From Moorella sp. Hama-1 (GTDB lineage: Bacteria; Bacillota; DSM-521; Neomoorellales; Neomoorellaceae): a stretch of DNA of 64,000 nucleotides. The notes below the pieces were generated by a model. The model worked only from the letters and a program-made list of their open reading frames with translations. It was not told the DNA's origin and ran no database searches. Location of the stretch: NCBI RefSeq assembly GCF_023734095.1, contig NZ_AP024620.1:492501-556500 (forward strand), read 5' to 3'. Positions 1,685-33,807 of the stretch are shown here, piece by piece. Numbering within the stretch: the first letter of the stretch is position 1; each line of letters opens with the position of its first letter. A program made the position numbers and the translations under genes.

Positions 1685-1973
1685 ATGCTTCCCGAAAATT
1701 TCAAACTAGGAAATGCCCGTTATACAGCAAAGAAGTTACCCCGGAAAGGATACGGCTGTTCCGGCTGGAAAGAAGGCTGCAGGTTTGTCATCTGGAAAGA
1801 AAATCGCCGGTAAAAAGATTATTGCCGGCCAGGCGAAGGAGTTGCTGCAAAAAGGCAGGACCGGGATACTCAAAGGCTTTAAGTCCCGGGCCGGGAAGGA
1901 ATTCGACGCCTCCCTGGTCCTGGGGGAATATGGTAAAGTAAATCTCAAATTTGAAAAACAGCAGGAGGGATAA
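1685..1973 (+). pseudogene. Decayed duplicate of the topoisomerase C-terminal repeat
   Basis: A strong AAAGGAGG site precedes ATG 1685. The frame then matches the second repeat of the gene at 2-658 (KGYGCSGWKEGC), runs into a stop at about 1811, and continues in another frame to 1973. Compared with the intact repeat, one A is inserted in the TGGAAAGAAATCGCC region. At least two more frame changes occur upstream, where the CPLC cysteines should be. The last bases before the next gene, AGCAGGAGG, match the end of the intact copy. It is therefore a broken partial duplication and not a separate gene. Confidence 0.75.
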
Positions 1974-1977
1974 TACT

Positions 1978-2832
1978 ATGCGTTTAGCGCCGGAAGGGCT
2001 CAACATCAGGGATATAGATCCATGGGATGCTCTGTACATTGCCAGGGATAAAGGGAAAATCGTAAATGTGACCATAGTTCGTACGAGGCAGGTCAATGGC
2101 CAGGGCCTTACCTGGGAGACCAGCTTTGGAGATCAGGAAAATCTATTCGAGATTGTCGGGTTAATCCCAGAATCGGAAAGCGGCCTCCCCGACGGTATAT
2201 CAATGAACTGGTTTAGAAACCAGTCTGTTGCGGCGAAAGTCAAAGGAATTGACAGGAGGAACAACATAGTCGCCCTTTCCAGAAGAGAGGTTGTAGAAGA
2301 GAATCTGAGTCGTCTACTTGATCAACTGGAAGAATCAGAACGACTTTACGCCCTTATAAGAGCCGCCAGGCCGGCGGGCATTGTTGTGGATATCGGAGGC
2401 GGCGTTCTAATCGACATACCCCGCAAAAAAATTAATCTATCCAGAGCAGTGCCTATTGAAGTGCAATATACCCCCGGCCAATTAGCAAAAGTGGAGGTTA
2501 CAGGGATTGATAAAACGTCAAAAAGAATTGATGTCGCAATAATAGATCCATGGCAGCCCAATGAATTCGCCAGGGGCGAAATGGTGACCGGGAAAATAGT
2601 TCAGACCGTCGATAACGTTGCCTTTGTCCAGGTAAGGCCCGGTTTGGTCGGCATTGCCCCTTATCCCAAGAGCGAGCATATGGGAATCGGTGATACAGCG
2701 AGCTATCAAGTGCGAAAATATGATGCGGATGGCAGGGTGCTCCACCTTGTCCGCTGGGATGACGAAAGGATCAGGGGAAGGAGGGGTCAACGTGCACGAA
2801 GGATCAGAAAAGAAGCAAGCAGTCCCGAATAA
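1978..2832 (+). CDS. S1-like RNA-binding domain protein
   Basis: A 284-residue protein; ATG 1978 is chosen because GCAGGAGGGA lies nine bases upstream. Three successive OB/S1-like units can be read at about residues 25-100, 120-190 and 195-255, the last two with the pattern GxIVxxVDNVAFVQV and later IGDTASYQVRKYD. Each ends in a strand such as NNIVALSRRE, SKRIDVAII or GRVLHLVRW. The C terminus is arginine-rich (RIRGRRGQRARRIRK), as expected for a nucleic-acid binder. In the element it follows the topoisomerase gene; the partner nucleic acid is unknown. It overlaps the next gene by 41 bases. Confidence 0.65.
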   Translation: MRLAPEGLNIRDIDPWDALYIARDKGKIVNVTIVRTRQVNGQGLTWETSFGDQENLFEIVGLIPESESGLPDGISMNWFRNQSVAAKVKGIDRRNNIVALSRREVVEENLSRLLDQLEESERLYALIRAARPAGIVVDIGGGVLIDIPRKKINLSRAVPIEVQYTPGQLAKVEVTGIDKTSKRIDVAIIDPWQPNEFARGEMVTGKIVQTVDNVAFVQVRPGLVGIAPYPKSEHMGIGDTASYQVRKYDADGRVLHLVRWDDERIRGRRGQRARRIRKEASSPE

Positions 2833-3463
2833 AAAGGACGTTAATTACGCCAGGGGGATAACCATGGGCGCAGCCCAATACAGGCAGGGGGACTGCGAGT
2901 CCCTCGATTTCACGGGCCGCGCCTCCGAACTTATTATGTGCCTCTCGGAAGCGCTGGCCCTTACTACCGGCGCGGCGGCAATCGCCTTATCATGCCACCG
3001 CAAAGTGGCCGGTTCGGCCATGAACAGCTTGTGGTGGTCGGGCATGGTCCGCTGGGTTAATGTCTTCGCCGAAATGGGGCAGTATCAAGGTCAATTCCGC
3101 TTATGGTATCGGGCCGACGCCAGGCCGCCCCGGGACGCCCAGGAAGCATGCCGTCTGGCGGCTTTGGGGCTTTTCTACGCCCTGGCGAAAAAGGAGGTGC
3201 CGGGATTCAAATGGCAGGTAATGAGAAACGGCAAGAATGGTATTTTGGCAGAGATGCAATTCGACAGCAACAGCGGGGCCAACAAATGGCTGATTGACGC
3301 TCCGCGCCGGGACGAAAATCCCCATCCCCAGGCCGACGTTTATATTTTTCCAACTTTGCTAGAAGGAGAAACCCTTACGCCGGCGGGGAAAATGTATACC
3401 GCCGACGAACTGCTCTTTGAACCCGGAGAACTGCGCCGGAAAATTTTTCGGAAAACCCCTTGA
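2792..3463 (+). CDS. Hypothetical protein of the element backbone
   Basis: A 223-residue protein. GTG 2792 is the likely start, because GGGAAGGAGGGG sits just upstream inside the preceding S1-domain gene. No signal peptide or membrane segment is visible. The middle holds LSEALALTTGAAAIALS and a tryptophan-rich stretch (NSLWWSGMVRWVN). The end has VYIFPTLLEGE. I do not recognise a family. Translational overlap with the S1-domain gene suggests coexpression. It is the last gene before the structured gene-free region at 3525-4320. Confidence 0.55.
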   Translation: MHEGSEKKQAVPNKKDVNYARGITMGAAQYRQGDCESLDFTGRASELIMCLSEALALTTGAAAIALSCHRKVAGSAMNSLWWSGMVRWVNVFAEMGQYQGQFRLWYRADARPPRDAQEACRLAALGLFYALAKKEVPGFKWQVMRNGKNGILAEMQFDSNSGANKWLIDAPRRDENPHPQADVYIFPTLLEGETLTPAGKMYTADELLFEPGELRRKIFRKTP

Positions 3464-3572
3464 CGGCTGCCAGACAAACTGCTAATCTTTAATTTAAGAT
3501 AAACTTCCTATACTTTCAACTCCTTGCCTGCCAGGGTACCCTCTCCTGGCACGGGTGGAAGTCCCGGAGCAA

Positions 3573-3779
3573 CTGCCGGCGATGAGCGGGCGGATATGTT
3601 GGCAAGCGAGGTCCTGGGAAAAATTCCTCGTGATGAGCAGGGTGTACTCTCAGGACAGGCGCGTTAGCGATGAGCAGGCGCGCCACATCTCGCGCCATGG
3701 CGATGAGCAGGCGCGGGCGGTGGGACCCAACCGAAATAGCGGGCAAAATGGCACGACCGCCACGGCGATGAGCAGGCGG
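3573..3779 (+). repeat. Five hairpins with a conserved GCGATGAGCA loop
   Basis: The motif (G/C)G(C/T)GATGAGC(A/G)GG occurs at about 3579, 3630, 3667, 3700 and 3765. Four copies sit in the loop of a clear stem: CTGCC/GGCGG (3573-3593), GGCGCG/CGCGCC (3658-3684), CGCGCC/GGCGCG (3691-3715) and CCGCC/GGCGG (3757-3779). The second copy has only a weak stem. The stems differ in sequence but keep pairing while the loop is constant, which points to a repeated protein- or RNA-binding loop. Confidence 0.6.
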
Positions 3780-3899
3780 CGTGAACCGGAAGATGGCCGG
3801 CGCTACAGGTCCGGCCCGTGGGGTAAGCGGTGCAAACCGCAACGGCAGGAAGGTGGACTCTTCCGAGGGCAACCGTAATAACCCCTTGTAAAAAATGTC

Positions 3900-4098
3900 C
3901 TAACCGCCGCAGGCGGGAGCTGACCAACTCCAGTGGCGCTAAAAGTGGGGGGTGGCCTCCCCGACATGAACTGGCTAGCTGCCGATCAAAGGAGAGCCCC
4001 AACCTTCGGCAGTGACAAGAAAGCTGACGGGCTAACCGCCGCAGGCCGGAGAGTGCCCAACTCCAGCGGCGCTAAAAGGGTAGGAGTGGCTGTCCTCA
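3900..4098 (+). repeat. Two diverged 66-base tandem units in element RNA 1
   Basis: Units at 3900-3965 and 4032-4098 share CTAACCGCCGCAGGC, CCAACTCCAG and GGCGCTAAAAG in the same order, with a spacing of 132 bases. Each can form CCGCC(GCA)GG-type, GGAG/CTCC-type and a third G-rich hairpin. The first hairpin also occurs in element RNA 2, at 8615-8627. Confidence 0.6.
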
Positions 4099-4164
4099 AA
4101 TAGACGGGGCAGGGTTGCGCGATCGGGAGCGGTTCACCGGCGCGGCCCGCGAAGAAGGAACCGC

Positions 4165-4232
4165 AATGATATGTACGCCTAATGGCGTACAGGAGAGATA
4201 ATGATATGCACGCCTTATGGCGTGCAGGAGAA
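4165..4232 (+). repeat. Tandem 35-base hairpin units with a compensatory base pair
   Basis: Two units, at 4165 and 4200, each read AATGATATG, a 7-bp stem, a four-base loop and CAGGAGA. The stems are GTACGCC/GGCGTAC and GCACGCC/GGCGTGC. The one difference in the stem is a T-A pair replaced by C-G, with both bases changed. That is direct evidence that pairing is selected. Confidence 0.7.
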
Positions 4233-4254
4233 AATGAAATATTAGCTAAGAAAT

Positions 4255-4318
4255 AAAACACTTTGGCCGACGAAAGCAAGTTAAGCATTACTTGCCAGGT
4301 TAGAGTGTTTTTTGCTTT
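4255..4318 (+). terminator. Rho-independent terminator of element RNA 1
   Basis: AAAACACT (4255-4262) pairs with AGTGTTTT (4304-4311), with an inner stem GCAAGT/ACTTGC, followed by TTTGCTTTT. It closes the structured region on its 3' side. Confidence 0.7.
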
Positions 4319-4327
4319 TGCAAGGCC

Positions 4328-4384
4328 CTCCCACGGGCGCAAGTTTTCAAGCGCCCGCGGGAGAAAACCCCCGGGCGCTTTAAT
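4328..4384 (+). promoter_or_regulatory. Two mutually exclusive hairpins, attenuator-like
   Basis: CTCCC-CGGGCGC (4328-4340) can pair with GCGCCCG-GGGAG (4351-4363). The same GCGCCCGCGGG (4351-4361) can instead pair with CCCCCGGGCGC (4368-4378), which is followed by TTTAATTT. The second form looks like a terminator and the first would prevent it. The region lies 40 bases before the MazF-like operon and right behind the terminator of element RNA 1. Confidence 0.5.
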
Positions 4385-4422
4385 TTAACGAAAGGAGCGT
4401 TCCGGGATGAAAGGGGATTATT

Positions 4423-4629
4423 ATGAACCGGGAAGAAGTGGCAAAGATTGTCGAGGAGTTGCCCAAAGAGGACCAGATCTGGCTGTTAAACCAGATCATC
4501 TGGCGGTTCTGGCCGCAGTTCCAGGGCAAGGCGGTGGCCTTCTATGACCCAACCGAGGCCTGGGATGACTGGGACGACGAAGAACTGGACGAGTATTACC
4601 AAAAAAAGTGGGAGGAAGCAAAGGAGTAA
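4423..4629 (+). CDS. Small acidic protein, probable antitoxin partner of the MazF-like protein
   Basis: A 68-residue acidic protein, ATG 4423, beginning MNREEVAKIVEELPKEDQ and ending in an Asp/Glu/Trp-rich tail. The first half looks like a helical pair that could bind a partner; no DNA-binding fold is obvious. Its 3' end overlaps the MazF-like reading frame, the usual order for antitoxin before toxin. The antitoxin role is inferred from position only. Confidence 0.55.
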   Translation: MNREEVAKIVEELPKEDQIWLLNQIIWRFWPQFQGKAVAFYDPTEAWDDWDDEELDEYYQKKWEEAKE

Positions 4630-5478: not shown

Positions 5479-5745
5479 GTGATTGCCGTGGAAGAAACCA
5501 AAAAGGAAACGGCATCGGCAGGGGAACCTCCGCACCGTCTGGTGTCGGAAGAGTTTTTCTTCCTGCTAAACCGAATTGACCGGCTGGACGAGAAGATGAG
5601 TGCTGGCTTTAGTGAGGTACGGAAGGAACTTACTGATGTCCGCAAGGAGATCGTGGGTGTCCACCGCTGGTCTTTCGGCCTGCTGGTAACCATGCTGGTA
5701 GGCTTCGCCAGCGTAATCGTCACCCTCGCCTTGGGACTTCGATAG
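5479..5745 (+). CDS. Small C-tail-anchored membrane protein, copy 1
   Basis: An 88-residue protein from GTG 5479 with GGAGGTGA upstream. Residues 25-60 form a charged amphipathic helix (LLNRIDRLDEKMSAGFSEV). The last 22 residues are one membrane segment (GLLVTMLVGFASVIVTLALG) ending in LR. The layout resembles small coiled-coil, tail-anchored phage proteins of the XhlA kind, but the sequence is not diagnostic. It is followed by a near-identical second copy. Confidence 0.6.
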   Translation: MIAVEETKKETASAGEPPHRLVSEEFFFLLNRIDRLDEKMSAGFSEVRKELTDVRKEIVGVHRWSFGLLVTMLVGFASVIVTLALGLR

Positions 5746-5805
5746 AAAGAGGCAATTTAACCTTGCCAGAACGCCACCGGCGTAATATGATGGAGGTGAA
5801 GGCGG

Positions 5806-6051
5806 GTGATTGCTATGGAAGAGACTAAAAAGGAAACGGCATCGGCAGGGGAACCTCCGCACCGCCTGGTGTCGGAAGAGTTTTTCTTCCTGCTGAACCG
5901 GATCGACCGCCTGGACGAAAAGATAAGCGCCAAGCTGGATAGTATGCACAAGGAGATGGGGGGCATCAACCGCTGGGCTTTCGGCCTGCTGGTAACCATG
6001 CTGGTAGGTTTCGCCGGCGTAATCGTCACCCTCGCCTTGGGGCTGCGGTAA
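5806..6051 (+). CDS. Small C-tail-anchored membrane protein, copy 2
   Basis: An 81-residue near-duplicate of the preceding protein; GTG 5806 or ATG 5815 could start it. The first 40 residues and the C-terminal membrane segment are almost unchanged. The middle helix is shorter (KISAKLDSMHKEMGG). Two versions of different helix length could form mixed oligomers, or the copy may be redundant. A terminator follows at 6083. Confidence 0.6.
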   Translation: MIAMEETKKETASAGEPPHRLVSEEFFFLLNRIDRLDEKISAKLDSMHKEMGGINRWAFGLLVTMLVGFAGVIVTLALGLR

Positions 6052-7036: not shown

Positions 7037-8023
7037 ATGCAGGCGTTAAGGGATACCAGCGAGCCTTTCCGGCGGGTTTCCCGCCGGGAGCCCTGCCCCA
7101 TCTGCGGCAGAACCGACTGGTGCGGGATTAACTCCCGTCTGGCGGTATGTATGCGGGTCGAGAGCGATTACCCGGTAAGTAACGGCGGCTGGCTGCATAA
7201 GCTGGCCCCCGGCATGGTAAAAGAAGAGGACATCGCGCCGGCGGAAACCAATCCCGCGGCGCCTGTAGCGATAAAGGATCGCGCCTACCGGGCCTTTTTA
7301 AACTCCCTGCACCTACTGCCGGAGCATAAAAAAGACCTGTTGCGGCGCGGTTTATCCGAGGAAAAGATCACAGGAAACGGGTATAAGAGCGTACCGGCGC
7401 TCATGGAGCGCTGGCGAATTTGCAGGGAGTTAAAGGAACAGGGATACGCCCTATCCGGCATTCCGGGCTTCTACCAGGCCCGGGGCCGTTACGGCGGCTT
7501 TTACTGGACCTTTAAGGCGCTGCCGGGATATTTCATCCCGGTACGCGATAGCGAGGGCCGCATCCAGGCATTGCAAATAAGGCTAGATAAGCCGGACAGT
7601 TATGGCAAGTACCGTTTTTTCAGCACCCCCAATCAAACCGGCGGCTCCTCCTCCGGCGCCCCGTGCCATGTGGCCCGGCCGGAAGAACTGAAAGACCGCC
7701 GGGTATGGGTGACTGAAGGGCCGCTCAAAGCCGACATCGCTTCCCGTTATCTGGGTTCCGTCTTTATCGGCGTACCGGGCGCCAGTAACTGGCGCCCGGC
7801 GGTAGAGGCAATCCAGGAACTGGGAGCAAGAGAAGTGGTAATAGCCTATGACCGTGATAAGATCCTTAAAGATGCTGTGAAACGTGCGGAAAGGGAATTA
7901 AAGGCGAATTTGAGAAGAAAAGGCATAAGAGTATTTATAGCCTCCTGGAATCAGGAAAAGGGAATCGACGACGCCCTGGTTTCGGGATGCGAAATAACGG
8001 TAAAAGAAGAGAGGGGAGCATAA
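7037..8023 (+). CDS. Primase-like protein with zinc finger and Toprim (DUF3854-type) domain
   Basis: A 328-residue protein from ATG 7037. Residues 20-38 carry CPICGRTDWC and a later Cys, a zinc-finger arrangement seen in primases. The middle has GYFIPVRDSEGRIQALQIR and KYRFFS, typical of the DUF3854 region. It is followed by a Toprim-like core with VWVTEGPLKADIA (acidic residue) and VVIAYDRD. Such proteins accompany replication modules of plasmids, phages and conjugative elements and are thought to prime or assist replication. The next gene starts two bases after its stop. Confidence 0.75.
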   Translation: MQALRDTSEPFRRVSRREPCPICGRTDWCGINSRLAVCMRVESDYPVSNGGWLHKLAPGMVKEEDIAPAETNPAAPVAIKDRAYRAFLNSLHLLPEHKKDLLRRGLSEEKITGNGYKSVPALMERWRICRELKEQGYALSGIPGFYQARGRYGGFYWTFKALPGYFIPVRDSEGRIQALQIRLDKPDSYGKYRFFSTPNQTGGSSSGAPCHVARPEELKDRRVWVTEGPLKADIASRYLGSVFIGVPGASNWRPAVEAIQELGAREVVIAYDRDKILKDAVKRAERELKANLRRKGIRVFIASWNQEKGIDDALVSGCEITVKEERGA

Positions 8024-9038: not shown

Positions 9039-9524
9039 ATGGCCAGAATGTTGCGCATCCAGTGGAAGCCGACCGGCAATGAAGCTTACGACAGGCTCCT
9101 CGGGCAATTTGTGGAACGGGTGGCCAGGTATGCGCGGGGCGGTTCTATCCAGACGAGAGTGAGGAAGTATGAACGCTACCGCGCCTTTTTACGCTTTTTA
9201 GCGGCGAGGTTCGCACCCCAGGACATCCGCAATATCCAGCCGCGTCATGTAGCGGCCTATATCGCCCACCGCCGCCAGGCGGGGGTGCAGGAAAAGACGA
9301 TCCTGGCCGAACTGTCAATCATCAGGTGGTGGCACAACCAGATCCCCTGGCGCAAATACGAAATGCCGGATAATAAGACCCTGTTTGAACTGGAGGAGAA
9401 ACTGGATGACAAAACGTTCAGCGAAGAAGTCAGGTACCAGTATAAAATCACCCACTCCCGGAGGCGACGGCTTATTTCACAATCTAGAGATCCAGTTCGA
9501 GAAGGTCTACCGGCAGGCCGTTAA
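9039..9524 (+). CDS. Integrase N-terminal (core-binding) domain protein
   Basis: A 161-residue protein; ATG 9039, or ATG 9048 with GGGGG upstream. Residues 10-105 resemble the SAM-like core-binding domain of tyrosine recombinases and are similar to the N terminus of the next gene (TRVRKYERYRAFLRFLAARF against KTHFRYRDSMKKFLSFCATRF). No catalytic domain follows. It overlaps the next gene by 119 bases in another frame, and the last 45 residues are encoded in that overlap. It may be a stand-alone DNA-binding factor, or the front of a longer protein lost by frameshift. Confidence 0.6.
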   Translation: MARMLRIQWKPTGNEAYDRLLGQFVERVARYARGGSIQTRVRKYERYRAFLRFLAARFAPQDIRNIQPRHVAAYIAHRRQAGVQEKTILAELSIIRWWHNQIPWRKYEMPDNKTLFELEEKLDDKTFSEEVRYQYKITHSRRRRLISQSRDPVREGLPAGR

Positions 9525-10368
9525 AGATACCCAGGGCAAGGTCAGCCTGAAGACCCATTTCCGCTACCGGGACAGCATGAAAAAATTCCTCTCATTTTGC
9601 GCCACCAGGTTCCGGCTGCAAAACCTGCGGAATATCAGCGACAAGCACCTGGAGGCTTACATCGACTACCGCCGCGGCAATGAAACCAGCGAGAAAACGA
9701 TCAAAGGCGACCTGGCGGCAGTTAGGTTTTTCCATCGCTATATTGATAGCGCCAGGAACCAGCTTTCCGGCAACGAAAAATTCGGCCTGGCTTCGACACC
9801 GGACGGCCGGGCGGACCGGGCCTGGAGCGACGGCGAATATGAGGGGATGGTAGCACTGGCGGAAAGGTTGGGCCGGCCGGAGGTGGCCCTGGCCCTGCGC
9901 CTGGCCAGGCACGCCGGGCTGCGGGTGCATGAAATCACCCGCCTTTCCCGGAAGGACGCCGAGCAAGCCCTGGCTGACGGCCTGCTGCATGTGAAAGGCA
10001 AAGGCGGGAAAGAACGCGATATCCCCCTGGCGGCGGAAGCGGTTGCGGCCTTAAAGGAAGCCTGTGAAATGGCGGCGGGTGAAAATGACAAACTCCTCGT
10101 CCCCCCGGGGGAAAAGACCCATTTAGTAATTAAGCGGATCCAAAATTTTATCCGCCGGCACCGGGATAAGGTAATGGAATCAGGGAAGGGGGTCAACATT
10201 ACTTTTCACGGCCTGCGGCACGCTTACGCCCGGGAGCAGTTCCGGGTAAAGGTAGGGGAGTTGAAGAAGATAAGGCGCGCCCTGGCGGAGGTTTCGTCAA
10301 GGCTGGGCCACAACCGGCCGGAGGTGACCAGGATTTATTTGGGATCGGAGTGGAAGAAGAGAGGTTAA
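9406..10368 (+). CDS. Tyrosine recombinase / integrase
   Basis: A 320-residue protein from ATG 9406, chosen because GGAGGAG lies six bases upstream. The N-terminal part (to about residue 115) is a core-binding domain. The catalytic domain has all the expected residues: Arg near 173 (HAGLRVHE), Lys near 196 (VKGKGGKERDIPL), the HGLRH box near 268, His near 302 (LGHNRPE) and Tyr near 311 (TRIYLG). It should catalyse site-specific strand exchange. It lies in the middle of the block, far from the spoVR border, so it may serve resolution or a nested element and not the outer integration. Confidence 0.85.
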   Translation: MTKRSAKKSGTSIKSPTPGGDGLFHNLEIQFEKVYRQAVKDTQGKVSLKTHFRYRDSMKKFLSFCATRFRLQNLRNISDKHLEAYIDYRRGNETSEKTIKGDLAAVRFFHRYIDSARNQLSGNEKFGLASTPDGRADRAWSDGEYEGMVALAERLGRPEVALALRLARHAGLRVHEITRLSRKDAEQALADGLLHVKGKGGKERDIPLAAEAVAALKEACEMAAGENDKLLVPPGEKTHLVIKRIQNFIRRHRDKVMESGKGVNITFHGLRHAYAREQFRVKVGELKKIRRALAEVSSRLGHNRPEVTRIYLGSEWKKRG

Positions 10369-30864: not shown

Positions 30865-31515
30865 GTGCGCCGAGCCAAGCTCGGATTATGCTCGTGGGCT
30901 GAAAAATGCCCACCGCGGTAATTTCCCGTTCGCCGCGAAGTCTGAGGCAGGCGGGCAGGGGTAACCCGAAACGTCAAGCTGCCTGACAAAGGTCCGCAAG
31001 GATCGAGACGGGAGGGGCGGGCCGTAACGCAAGTAAACCCGAGGTGGCCTCGAAAACGCAGTTGCTGCTGGCGACCTTGCCCCACAATGGGGAAGCCTGA
31101 CATCCGCCGTGGAGCAACGGGCTGGCTCAAGGCACCGGTAGTTGAACCAGGCGGACCCCGGCAAGGCAAGAAGAACCAGCAGGGAACGCCCCAGGGAGGG
31201 CCTTTATCACCTTGCTGGCCAACGTATATCTGAACAAGCTGGACTGCTACTGGTATAGTGCCCAGGGGCCGTACGTTAAATATAACGCCCGCCTGGTACG
31301 TTACGCCGATGATTTTTGCTGGCCCGCTATATTGGGAAACCGGTACAGGAAGCCGTAGAGGAAACCATTGCTGCTCTAGGACTAACCTTAAACCGGGAGA
31401 AGACCCGCATCTTTAACCTTCGCGCCGGAGAAGAGTTGAACTTCCTGGGATACACCATTAACATGTGGAATACCCGCCACAGGTCCGTTCAACTTAAACC
31501 CAGCCACAAGGCCTA
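30865..31515 (+). mobile_element. Degenerate group II intron
   Basis: GTGCGCCGAGCCAAGCTCGG at 30865 has the GTGCG 5' end and first stem of bacterial group II introns. The next 300 bases are GC-rich and stem-forming (for example AATTTCCCG and CGAGACGGGAGGGGCGG segments typical of domain I). A broken reverse transcriptase frame follows from 31183. No convincing domain V or 3' splice site is found, so the 3' end is lost. It lies directly behind the tRNA cluster. Confidence 0.65.
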
Positions 31516-31516: not shown

Positions 31517-31587
31517 GTTGTACATTTTGCAGGAAAAAGAGATTTTGTGTCGAATATCAAATAACGAACGGAAAACGTTACCCTTTC

Positions 31588-31690
31588 CCCAAGGGCAAAC
31601 CTTCCGAAAGGGAGGGACGCAAAGTCATGGGTCTAAGGCTGTAGCTATGATTGCCAGACTGCCGGGATTTCCTCTGGCAGCCTTTTTAGG
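31588..31690 (+). promoter_or_regulatory. Cyclic-di-GMP-I (GEMM) riboswitch with terminator
   Basis: The aptamer core is visible as GGCAAACC, CCGAAAGG, GGGACGCAAAG and GGGTCTAAGG, the GEMM-I consensus. It closes with GATTGCCAG near 31650-31658. The expression platform is CTGCC (31659-31663) pairing with GGCAG (31676-31680), then CCTTTTT. The chemoreceptor gene follows 125 bases later, so motility signalling appears to be set by cyclic-di-GMP. Whether ligand turns it on or off is not read from sequence. Confidence 0.88.
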
Positions 31691-31815: not shown

Positions 31816-33807
31816 ATGCACATTCGTACTATTAGACTTAGCAGTATTCGCAGCAGATTAATGATGGGTTTTTTAGTGGTTGCCCTGGTGCCGGTTATTA
31901 TCCTGGGATTATTTACATATCAGGCCAGCACCAATGAGTTAACCCGCGCCACCAATAACGAACTCCGCAATACGGCCTCTCTGACCTCGGCGATGGTTGA
32001 TTCCTGGATACAGGAGAAAATAAACCTCTTGCAGGCTGATAGTGATGATTTGCTTGCTGCGGCCACCAGCCCGGAGGGGGTACAGGACTTTTTAAAGAAA
32101 ACGGGTGCCAATACCCCGGAAGCCGATAAGTTGCTATGGATACCACCTGATGGCAAAGGCCAGACTTCCCTGGGGGAGAATATTGATGTTGCCAGCAGGA
32201 GTTACTTCCAGGAGGCCATGCGCGGGAACCCGAGTGTCTCCGAGTTAATCCAGAGTAAGATTAACCAGAAAAAGATTATTAACATTGCTATACCCGTTAA
32301 GGACCCCGATAATGGCTCTATTCGCGGTGTTCTGGCCGGGAGTTTTACGACCGATTCTTTGATGTCCCTGATTGGCAAGGTGAAGTATGGCCAGACCGGC
32401 TATACCTATATGATCGACAGGACGGGGGTCATAATCGCCCATCCGGATAAAACCAAAATACTTCAGGAAAACTTGACCCAAACGGAATCCCCTGGTCTCA
32501 ATGCCGTTGCCCGGGCCATGCTGGCCGGGAGGGGGGGCCTGGGCAGCTATGTTCGTAATAATGAAAGTCACCTGGCCGCTTATGAACCCGTTAAAGCGAG
32601 CGGTTGGACAGTGGTGGTGACCGCGCCGGCCCGGGAGGTCTATGCCGGGGTTACCAGGTTGCTACGGATCATTCTTTTGATCATTTTGCTGGTTATCCTG
32701 CTGGCAACCCTGGTGGCTGCCAGGCTCAGCCGCCAAATCTCCCGGCCGGTAATCGGCCTGGCCAGGGCTGCCGATACTATGGCTACCGGCAATCTGAAGG
32801 TAGCCATAGAAACGGGCTTTTATGGCGAACTGGGACAACTGGGGGAATCTCTTAAACGCATGGTGGCCAATACCCGTTCAATTCTTAGTTCAGTCCATGA
32901 TGGTATAAACCGGCTGGAAATGGCCATTAAGGAGATCTCCCAGGGGGCCGGTGATATGGCCGGGTCTTCCGAGCAGATGGCCAGGGCCGTTAATCAGATT
33001 TCGGCTGGTGCGGAGGAGGCTGCGAATAGTACCAGTAATATTTCCAGTTCAATTGAAAAGGTGAATGACCAGCTGGTTGCCCTGGCTGAAGCCATGGAAC
33101 AGATAGTAGCTCAGACGGCAAATGCCAGGGAGAAGACCAGTAGCGGCCAAAACAGCATGGAGCAACTGGTGGAAAAGCTTCAGACCAATGCCGAGCAGGC
33201 AACATCGGTAAAAACGGTAATGAGCAATTTGGCGGACCAGACCCGGCAAATCAGTGGCATTACCAGCGTTATCACTGGTATAGCCGAGCAGACCAATCTT
33301 CTGGCCCTTAATGCGGCCATTGAAGCCGCCCGGGCCGGAGAAGCAGGGCGCGGTTTTGCTGTGGTAGCCGATGAGATCAGAAAACTAGCTGAGGAGGTTA
33401 ATCAAAGGGCCCACGAAATAACCCTGCTGGTTGAGGGGGTTAATAATAATATTGGGTCGGCTGTTGCCGTTACCGATTCTACGGCGACCTTAATCGCCGA
33501 ACAAGCCGCCATCGGTCAGGCAGCGCGGGAACACTTCACTGCCATAGCCGCGGCAGTAAATGGTATAGCCTCTCTGATCCGCAGGGCTAACGAAAAGGTT
33601 ACCAGTCTTAAAAACCAGGGTGAGAGCATTACTGAGGCCGTCGGCGAGATCGCCGCCACCTCGGAGGAGCAAGCGGCAGCTGCTGAAGAGATTGCCGCCT
33701 CTACAGAGGAATTGAGTTCCTCAGCCCAGTCTATCAGTTCCGGGGCTAATAACCTGGAAAAGCTCATGAATAACCTTAAAGAAGAAAGCCAGAAATTTAC
33801 TATTTAA
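31816..33807 (+). CDS. Methyl-accepting chemotaxis protein with Cache sensor
   Basis: A 663-residue receptor from ATG 31816. A first membrane segment (about 15-37) is followed by an extracellular double-Cache-like domain (about 40-275, with [20 protein letters not shown]). The second membrane segment is at about 280-302, then HAMP (about 303-357). The cytoplasmic signalling domain has the highly conserved tip [39 protein letters not shown] in short pieces. It passes ligand signals to CheA. The upstream riboswitch places it under cyclic-di-GMP control. Confidence 0.95.

What the first reader, a model, noticed from the sequence alone, without database searches (positions are those of the whole stretch)
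3525..4320. Large, highly structured gene-free region (element RNA 1)
About 800 bases between an element backbone gene and a MazF-like operon hold more than ten stems, a multi-branch unit closed by GGGGT/ACCCC with a GCAA tetraloop arm, repeated units and a closing terminator. Coding potential is poor in all frames. The size and ornate layout resemble large non-coding RNAs of mobile elements (GOLLD, ROOL and HEARO are known examples), but the visible motifs match none that I know. An origin of replication or transfer acting as folded single-strand DNA is the alternative.
Basis: partly seen in the sequence, partly recalled or inferred. Interest (0 to 1): 0.82.

Follow-up and report, generated by a model that had tools for sequence, protein, structure and literature searches.

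The report
New five-armed mobile-element RNA family
A mobile element in a heat-loving Moorella bacterium makes a large, intricately folded RNA of a kind not found in the RNA-family library, with five arms capped by near-identical loops, found at 25 places in related bacteria next to the gene of one unnamed winged-helix protein that probably works with it.

Summary
Window 3495-4314 (+ strand) reads as a non-coding RNA gene. It has its own sigma-70-type promoter (TTGACG-17-TAATCT, 3460-3488) and a conserved intrinsic terminator. I found 25 homologous loci (569-794 nt) in Moorella relatives, a Desulfotomaculia-like class and one further class. Structure is supported by covariation: in the 5' domain of 20 distinct sequences 96.4% of pair cells are kept, 39 of 46 pairs show two-sided changes, and G-U outnumber A-C cells 69 to 4. 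No Rfam family matches, including GOLLD, ROOL, OLE and HEARO. Caps change in concert within each RNA; in one species four are true GNRA tetraloops. All 7 loci found through the RNA alone lie just downstream of an uncharacterised winged-helix protein gene (2792-3463), preceded by an S1-domain gene. RNA and winged-helix protein diverge together (partial Mantel 0.82); S1 does not, and the toxin-antitoxin downstream is optional. Most likely a multivalent RNA scaffold whose caps dock copies of the winged-helix protein; RNA-RNA docking (ROOL/GOLLD-like) is the main rival. Transcription and function are untested.

The parts
3460..3488 (+). Promoter of the RNA: -35 TTGACG (3460-3465), 17-nt spacer, -10 TAATCT (3483-3488)
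   Evidence: Sequence. The same arrangement, TTGACA with a 15-19 nt spacer and a TATAAT-like hexamer, precedes all 25 members; 24 of 25 have a perfect TTGACA. In the window row the script's best-scoring spacing was 15; the 17-nt reading given here is by eye and matches the relatives.
3495..4314 (+). Large structured non-coding RNA (start inferred from the promoter; structured part begins at 3521; end at the terminator T-run)
   Evidence: DNA homologs, covariance-model homologs, covariation, no Rfam match
3521..3656 (+). 5' domain: long closing helix around three hairpins (one GNRA-capped, one ending in arm 1), followed by arm 2
   Evidence: 96.4% of cells paired, 39 of 46 pairs with changes on both sides in 20 distinct sequences; 132.7 bits to R1
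3568..3600 (+). Arm 1, cap GC-GAUGA-GC at 3579-3587
   Evidence: Folds alone as stated; same cap at the same place in most members
3611..3656 (+). Arm 2, cap GU-GAUGA-GC at 3630-3638
3658..3684 (+). Arm 3, cap GC-GAUGA-GC at 3667-3675
3690..3716 (+). Arm 4, cap GC-GAUGA-GC at 3700-3708
3752..3783 (+). Arm 5, cap GC-GAUGA-GC at 3765-3773
3717..3898 (+). Core domain: GGUGGGACCC...CGGGCAAAAUGGC and the multi-branch unit closed by GGGGU/ACCCC with a GCAA-capped arm
   Evidence: Most conserved stretch; helices conserved in subgroup alignments, fewer two-sided changes than in the 5' domain
3900..4078 (+). 3' domain with two copies of a hairpin unit (3900-3945, 4032-4078); the second copy is absent in the close Moorella relatives
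4255..4314 (+). Intrinsic terminator AAAACACUUUGGCC...GGUUAGAGUGUUUUUUG
   Evidence: z -4.15; a matching terminator ends all 25 members
2792..3463 (+). hyp223: protein with a winged helix plus an alpha/beta domain, linked to the RNA; likely binding partner
   Evidence: AlphaFold2 pLDDT 87, pTM 0.85; winged-helix matches; linkage; co-divergence with the RNA
1951..2832 (+). Three-domain S1 (OB-fold) RNA-binding protein resembling ribosomal protein bS1; accompanies the module but recombines separately
   Evidence: Pfam S1; AlphaFold2 pLDDT 87; bS1 best structural match, Z 11.6; co-divergence test negative; gene frame-broken in one locus

Best explanation
The element carries a gene for a large structured non-coding RNA of about 0.8 kb. 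It is transcribed from its own promoter and ends at its own terminator (inferred from sequence conserved in 25 loci). The RNA folds into a 5' multi-helix junction, five arms and a 3' core (5' domain shown by covariation; arms shown by complementary stems of unlike sequence at the same places; core less complete). Each arm presents the same small module: a two-base-pair G-C clamp and a GNNRA pentaloop, a GNRA-like cap with one extra base, usually on an asymmetric internal loop. Inferred mechanism: the RNA is a multivalent scaffold or titrator whose repeated caps are equivalent docking sites for one kind of partner, most likely copies of the winged-helix protein hyp223 encoded just upstream. The RNA-protein particle would then control the element's replication, transfer or gene expression; this last step is a guess from the neighbouring genes. 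That this is a new large structured RNA family: about 0.95. That the caps bind hyp223: about 0.45.
For: RNA identity: covariation, GU 69 vs AC 4, promoter and terminator in all 25 members. Arm module: five caps near 60, 111, 150, 180 and 245 nt in most members, from 43% to 62% G+C; 106 arms in 22 RNAs have self-complementary stems of unlike sequence under the same cap. Concerted caps: two loops of one RNA are identical in 54% of pairs, loops of different RNAs in 22%, permutation p 0.0002; in G462 four of five caps are GNRA tetraloops and lack the internal loop in three of the four. Partner: the 7 loci found through the RNA alone all have hyp223 upstream; of 22 assessable hyp223 loci in one class 19 carry the RNA; in 398 genomes of the phylum no RNA occurs without hyp223. 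RNA distance tracks hyp223 distance given S1 (partial r 0.82, p 0.0005) and not S1 given hyp223 (-0.01). hyp223 and RNA form one block of DNA similarity with G288 (2838-4042, 74%), while flanks match other Moorella at 83-90%. A shorter hyp223 paralog (G423, G352) is followed by a short promoter-to-terminator stretch with three hairpins that also share one cap (C-UUGCGG-G) on unlike stems.
Against: No binding or expression data. hyp223 is the gene next to the RNA, so co-divergence may be linkage alone. Its winged helix resembles DNA-binding regulators, and winged helices mostly bind DNA. That G462 loses the extra loop base in four arms suggests that the GNRA shape matters, and GNRA caps often dock on RNA rather than protein. 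One hyp223 locus (G443) has neither RNA.
Confidence: 0.55

Rival explanations
1. A self-assembling ornate RNA: the GNRA-class caps dock by A-minor contacts into helices of the same or other copies, giving a compact or homo-oligomeric particle as in GOLLD, ROOL or OLE; hyp223 and S1 are only neighbours or accessories.
For: Size, ornate layout and mobile-element setting are like GOLLD/ROOL; A-minor contacts and kissing loops hold those assemblies together (PMC12286853). Caps are GNRA-like and in G462 true GNRA tetraloops; a further hairpin of the 5' domain is GRAA-capped in many members.
Against: Concerted change of five caps would ask for five receptors changing together; no set of five repeated receptors was seen. 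Does not by itself explain the strict link to, and co-divergence with, hyp223 or the three-hairpin stretch beside the hyp223 paralog.
Confidence: 0.3
2. A giant leader: the RNA is the 5' leader of the downstream operon and governs read-through of its terminator (processive antitermination or attenuation), with hyp223 or S1 as a trans factor.
For: The downstream genes looked at are co-oriented with the RNA. In several loci a GC-rich three-segment element able to form two exclusive hairpins follows the terminator (window 4325-4385). S1 domains also occur in transcription factors such as NusA.
Against: The genes just downstream differ between loci (MazF pair in 7, SSB in 8, other genes elsewhere), and the RNA tracks the gene upstream instead. 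The terminator is strong and conserved in all 25.
Confidence: 0.15
3. An origin of replication or transfer acting as folded single-strand DNA.
For: The element encodes primase-like, topoisomerase, RadC, coupling-protein and recombinase genes.
Against: GU 69 vs AC 4; promoter and terminator bracket the structure in every member. No relaxase gene was looked for.
Confidence: 0.05
4. RNA antitoxin of a type III-like toxin-antitoxin pair with the downstream MazF-like endoribonuclease.
For: Repeats, terminator, then a MazF-fold toxin gene, in the window and 6 other loci.
Against: 15 of 22 compared loci lack the MazF gene; MazF already has a protein-type partner gene beside it (4423-4629).
Confidence: 0.02

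Closest known systems
GOLLD and ROOL RNAs
   Same: Large, ornate, non-coding, carried by phages or other mobile elements, proven by covariation; GNRA-type and A-minor contacts important (PMC12286853).
   Different: No match to any Rfam model. The five concerted GNNRA arms and the linked winged-helix gene are not features known to me for them. Homo-oligomerisation untested.
OLE RNA
   Same: About 600 nt, found in extremophilic Firmicutes, linked to the gene of a protein that binds it (OapA; PMC12286853).
   Different: No Rfam match; partner here is a predicted winged-helix protein, not a membrane protein; carried by mobile elements; repeated-arm layout.
CsrB/RsmZ-type protein-titrating RNAs
   Same: Several hairpins with the same cap on stems of unlike sequence, which would titrate a small protein.
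   Different: Much larger and more structured.
boxB hairpins of lambdoid phages
   Same: GNRA-like pentaloop caps (lambda GAAGA/GAAAA, P22 GACAA; from memory) bound by a phage protein.
   Different: A single hairpin within a nut leader bound by an arginine-rich peptide; no five-arm RNA, no N-like gene seen here.
HEARO / omega RNA of IscB/IsrB elements
   Same: Structured RNA next to the gene of its protein partner in a mobile element.
   Different: No nuclease gene of that kind among the genes examined beside the RNA; no Rfam match.

Membership tests
GOLLD / ROOL / OLE / HEARO (Rfam models) | Match to the family's covariance model | tested here: not met
   No match at gathering score, none at E<=5 for window 3400-4420, none at E<=0.5 at the RNA in 13 homologous loci
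GOLLD / ROOL nanocage RNAs | Homo-oligomeric cage | not testable with these tools
   Needs biophysics or cryo-EM
Large ornate non-coding RNA (as a kind) | Long intergenic transcript with extensive covarying structure | tested here: met
   39 of 46 pairs covary in the 5' domain; 41 of 186 over the full length in 5 sequences; transcript itself not tested
Protein-titrating RNA (CsrB/RsmZ) | GGA in the hairpin loops | tested here: not met
   Caps are mostly GAUGA, GAAGA, GAAAA, GUCGA, GACGA, GCUGA; GAGGA only in a few
Type III toxin-antitoxin RNA | Invariable linkage to a toxin gene downstream | tested here: not met
   MazF gene in 7 of 22 compared loci
Origin of transfer or replication (folded ssDNA) | Structure without strand preference for G-U pairing; no transcript | tested here: not met
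   GU 69 vs AC 4; promoter and terminator conserved; transcript not tested
boxB-like GNRA pentaloop | G..RA pentaloop with GNRA-type fold | tested here: inconclusive
   GNNRA pattern met in nearly all caps and GNRA tetraloops replace it in G462; geometry not determined
Winged-helix protein (hyp223) | Winged-helix fold | tested here: met
   Residues 36-110 align to winged helices, Z up to 9.8; weak profile hits to IclR/MarR HTH and 2dbb, E 3.5e-4

The most novel reading that the evidence does not exclude
A new two-component RNA-protein system of mobile elements: a family of winged-helix proteins, each paired with its own RNA that displays several copies of one cap on unrelated stems. In the main branch the RNA is a giant five-armed ornate RNA with GNNRA caps; in a sister branch it is a short three-hairpin RNA with another cap. 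Protein and cap change together, so the pairs would be partly specific for their own element.
Probability: 0.35. Interest if true: 0.92.

Novelty: new variant of a known kind. Interest (0 to 1): 0.85.

Why it matters
Large ornate RNAs are among the least understood RNAs of bacteria; a 2025 cryo-EM paper states that the functions of GOLLD, ROOL and OLE remain poorly understood and that it is open whether cage formation is common among large RNAs (PMC12286853). This family adds a case with what those mostly lack: an obvious candidate protein partner, a repeated arm module whose natural variants can be read as an experiment, a short sister form, and probable cultured hosts. It makes the question of what a giant mobile-element RNA binds directly testable.

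Tried and rejected
Plasmid and phage collections: no DNA match to the RNA, no protein match to hyp223 in plasmids. Viral contigs: no match to two core patterns and no hyp223 relative. A core pattern in genome contigs found only M. mulderi and one MAG. G316 hit: a 32-nt chance match inside other sequence. S1-domain genes on Thermoanaerobacterium and Paenibacillus plasmids were looked at; no RNA found there with R2, not taken further. A supposed topoisomerase-S1 fusion in G459/G460 was wrong: a stop codon separates them. A weak Termite-leu match in L054 lies upstream of the RNA and under its gathering score. PADLOC: no defence family for S1, hyp223 or the extra gene between hyp223 and RNA. Whole-model fold searches of hyp223 are dominated by the winged helix; no good match for its C-terminal domain was seen, but that domain was not searched alone. 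A whole-length single alignment gave a poorer 3' half than subgroup alignments. Literature searches for a described RNA in Moorella or Desulfotomaculum found nothing.

Full report
1. The observation. The region between the gene ending at 3463 and the antitoxin gene starting at 4423 is non-coding and highly structured. It lies in a Moorella genome: the nearest named relative is M. mulderi DSM 14980. The genes around it (S1 protein, MazF pair, RadC, primase-like, tyrosine recombinase, VirD4-type coupling protein) are those of an integrated conjugative or plasmid-like element.

2. Homologs. DNA search found four relatives in the same family at about 76% identity and one in another family at 77%. 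A covariance model of the 5' domain (R1) found a seventh genome, G386, of a third family. Searching with the upstream protein in the class of G288 gave 25 loci; the RNA models found the RNA in 19 of these. In all, 25 loci carry the RNA. Two more have a short three-hairpin stretch instead (G423 contig 16, G352), one has neither (G443), and three could not be judged because of contig ends or an insertion.

3. Structure. Five sequences already gave 41 pairs with changes on both sides. In 20 distinct sequences of the 5' domain 96.4% of cells are paired, 39 of 46 pairs change on both sides, and the covariation score is 0.74 against 0.28 for shuffles and 0.09-0.17 for slid structures. The alignment was fitted to a model built from six of the members, so it leans towards that structure; the slide and shuffle controls are far lower. 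G-U cells are 69 and A-C cells 4, so the + strand RNA is what is selected. Every member starts just after a TTGACA-type promoter and ends in an intrinsic terminator. The core and 3' parts have conserved helices in subgroup alignments, with less covariation than the 5' domain.

4. The five arms. Near nucleotides 60, 111, 150, 180 and 245, most members have an arm ending in GC-GNNRA-GC. At one and the same arm the stems of different members are different sequences, yet self-complementary, while the cap persists. Within one RNA the caps agree: GAUGA five times in the window, GAAGA six times in G386, GAAAA five times in G418, GCUGA three times in G424, GUCGA/GACGA in G452. Two loops of one RNA are identical in 54% of pairs against 22% between RNAs (permutation p 0.0002; the filter let in a few loops that are not arm caps). 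In G462 four caps are GNRA tetraloops and three of these have lost the internal loop. I read this as selection for several equivalent docking sites with a GNRA-like shape; the geometry is inferred.

5. The partner gene. All seven loci found through the RNA alone have hyp223 and an S1-domain gene upstream. In 398 genomes of the phylum hyp223 occurs in nine; seven of these carry the RNA, one has the short form, one is interrupted, and no genome has the RNA without hyp223. Against its Moorella relatives the window's element is 83-90% identical in DNA on both sides, but S1, hyp223 and RNA have diverged (44%, 49% in protein and 76% in RNA). Against G288 the similarity is one block over hyp223 and RNA. 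Distances confirm this: RNA follows hyp223 given S1 (partial r 0.82, p 0.0005), not S1 given hyp223 (-0.01, p 0.5; 17 loci). Physical linkage could produce part of it, since hyp223 is the nearer gene; but in nine distant loci another gene lies between hyp223 and RNA. In G452 the S1 gene is frame-broken in this assembly while hyp223 and RNA stay. The genes after the RNA vary.

6. The proteins. hyp223 models well (pLDDT 87, pTM 0.85): a winged helix (residues 36-110) and an alpha/beta domain of unknown kind. S1 is three OB-folds like bS1 domains.

7. How it may work. Shown: RNA gene, fold, repeated concerted caps, genetic link to hyp223. Inferred: hyp223 binds the caps; the particle regulates the element. 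The short three-hairpin stretch beside a hyp223 paralog, again with one shared cap (C-UUGCGG-G) on unlike stems, fits a protein that reads repeated caps better than RNA-RNA docking does, but rests on two loci. Winged helices that bind RNA hairpins are known (SelB; established knowledge), so the idea is not far-fetched. Docking of caps on RNA, as in ROOL and GOLLD (PMC12286853), remains a serious rival, and both may be true together.

8. Novelty. No Rfam model matches, hyp223 has no Pfam, NCBIfam or PADLOC family, and I found no paper on it in the library (subscription journals are mostly missing). The kind, large ornate RNA of mobile elements, is known; the family and its repeated-cap plan appear new.

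9. Limits. No expression data; the 5' end is inferred. The class name Desulfotomaculia is likewise inferred.

Noticed in passing
L077:7351-7580 (+), L078 opposite strand near 7650-7880: Beside a shorter hyp223 paralog (196 aa): a promoter-to-terminator stretch with three hairpins sharing the cap C-UUGCGG-G on unlike stems; possible sister RNA.
   Followed up: partly
window 4325-4385: Three-segment GC-rich element after the terminator that can form two exclusive hairpins, conserved in loci with different downstream genes; possible attenuator.
   Followed up: no
window 9039-10368: Two overlapping tyrosine-recombinase-like ORFs (161 and 327 aa), similar to each other in part, both conserved in relatives.
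   Followed up: no
window 5479-6051: Tandem near-duplicate small genes (88 and 81 aa) with a predicted membrane end, also duplicated in relatives.
   Followed up: no
window 1713-1973: Extra copy of the topoisomerase C-terminal repeat between the topoisomerase end and the S1 gene.
   Followed up: no
window 30895-31032 and 31585-31667: A group II intron D1-D4 match near a tRNA cluster, and a c-di-GMP-I riboswitch upstream of a chemoreceptor-like gene at 31816.
   Followed up: no
L067:8000-8770 (-) and eight other loci: A further unnamed gene of about 244-257 aa between hyp223 and the RNA in the distant members; no Pfam or PADLOC match.
   Followed up: partly
L069:5500-6578: S1 gene broken by frameshifts in G452 while hyp223 and the RNA are intact; may be an assembly error.
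   Followed up: partly
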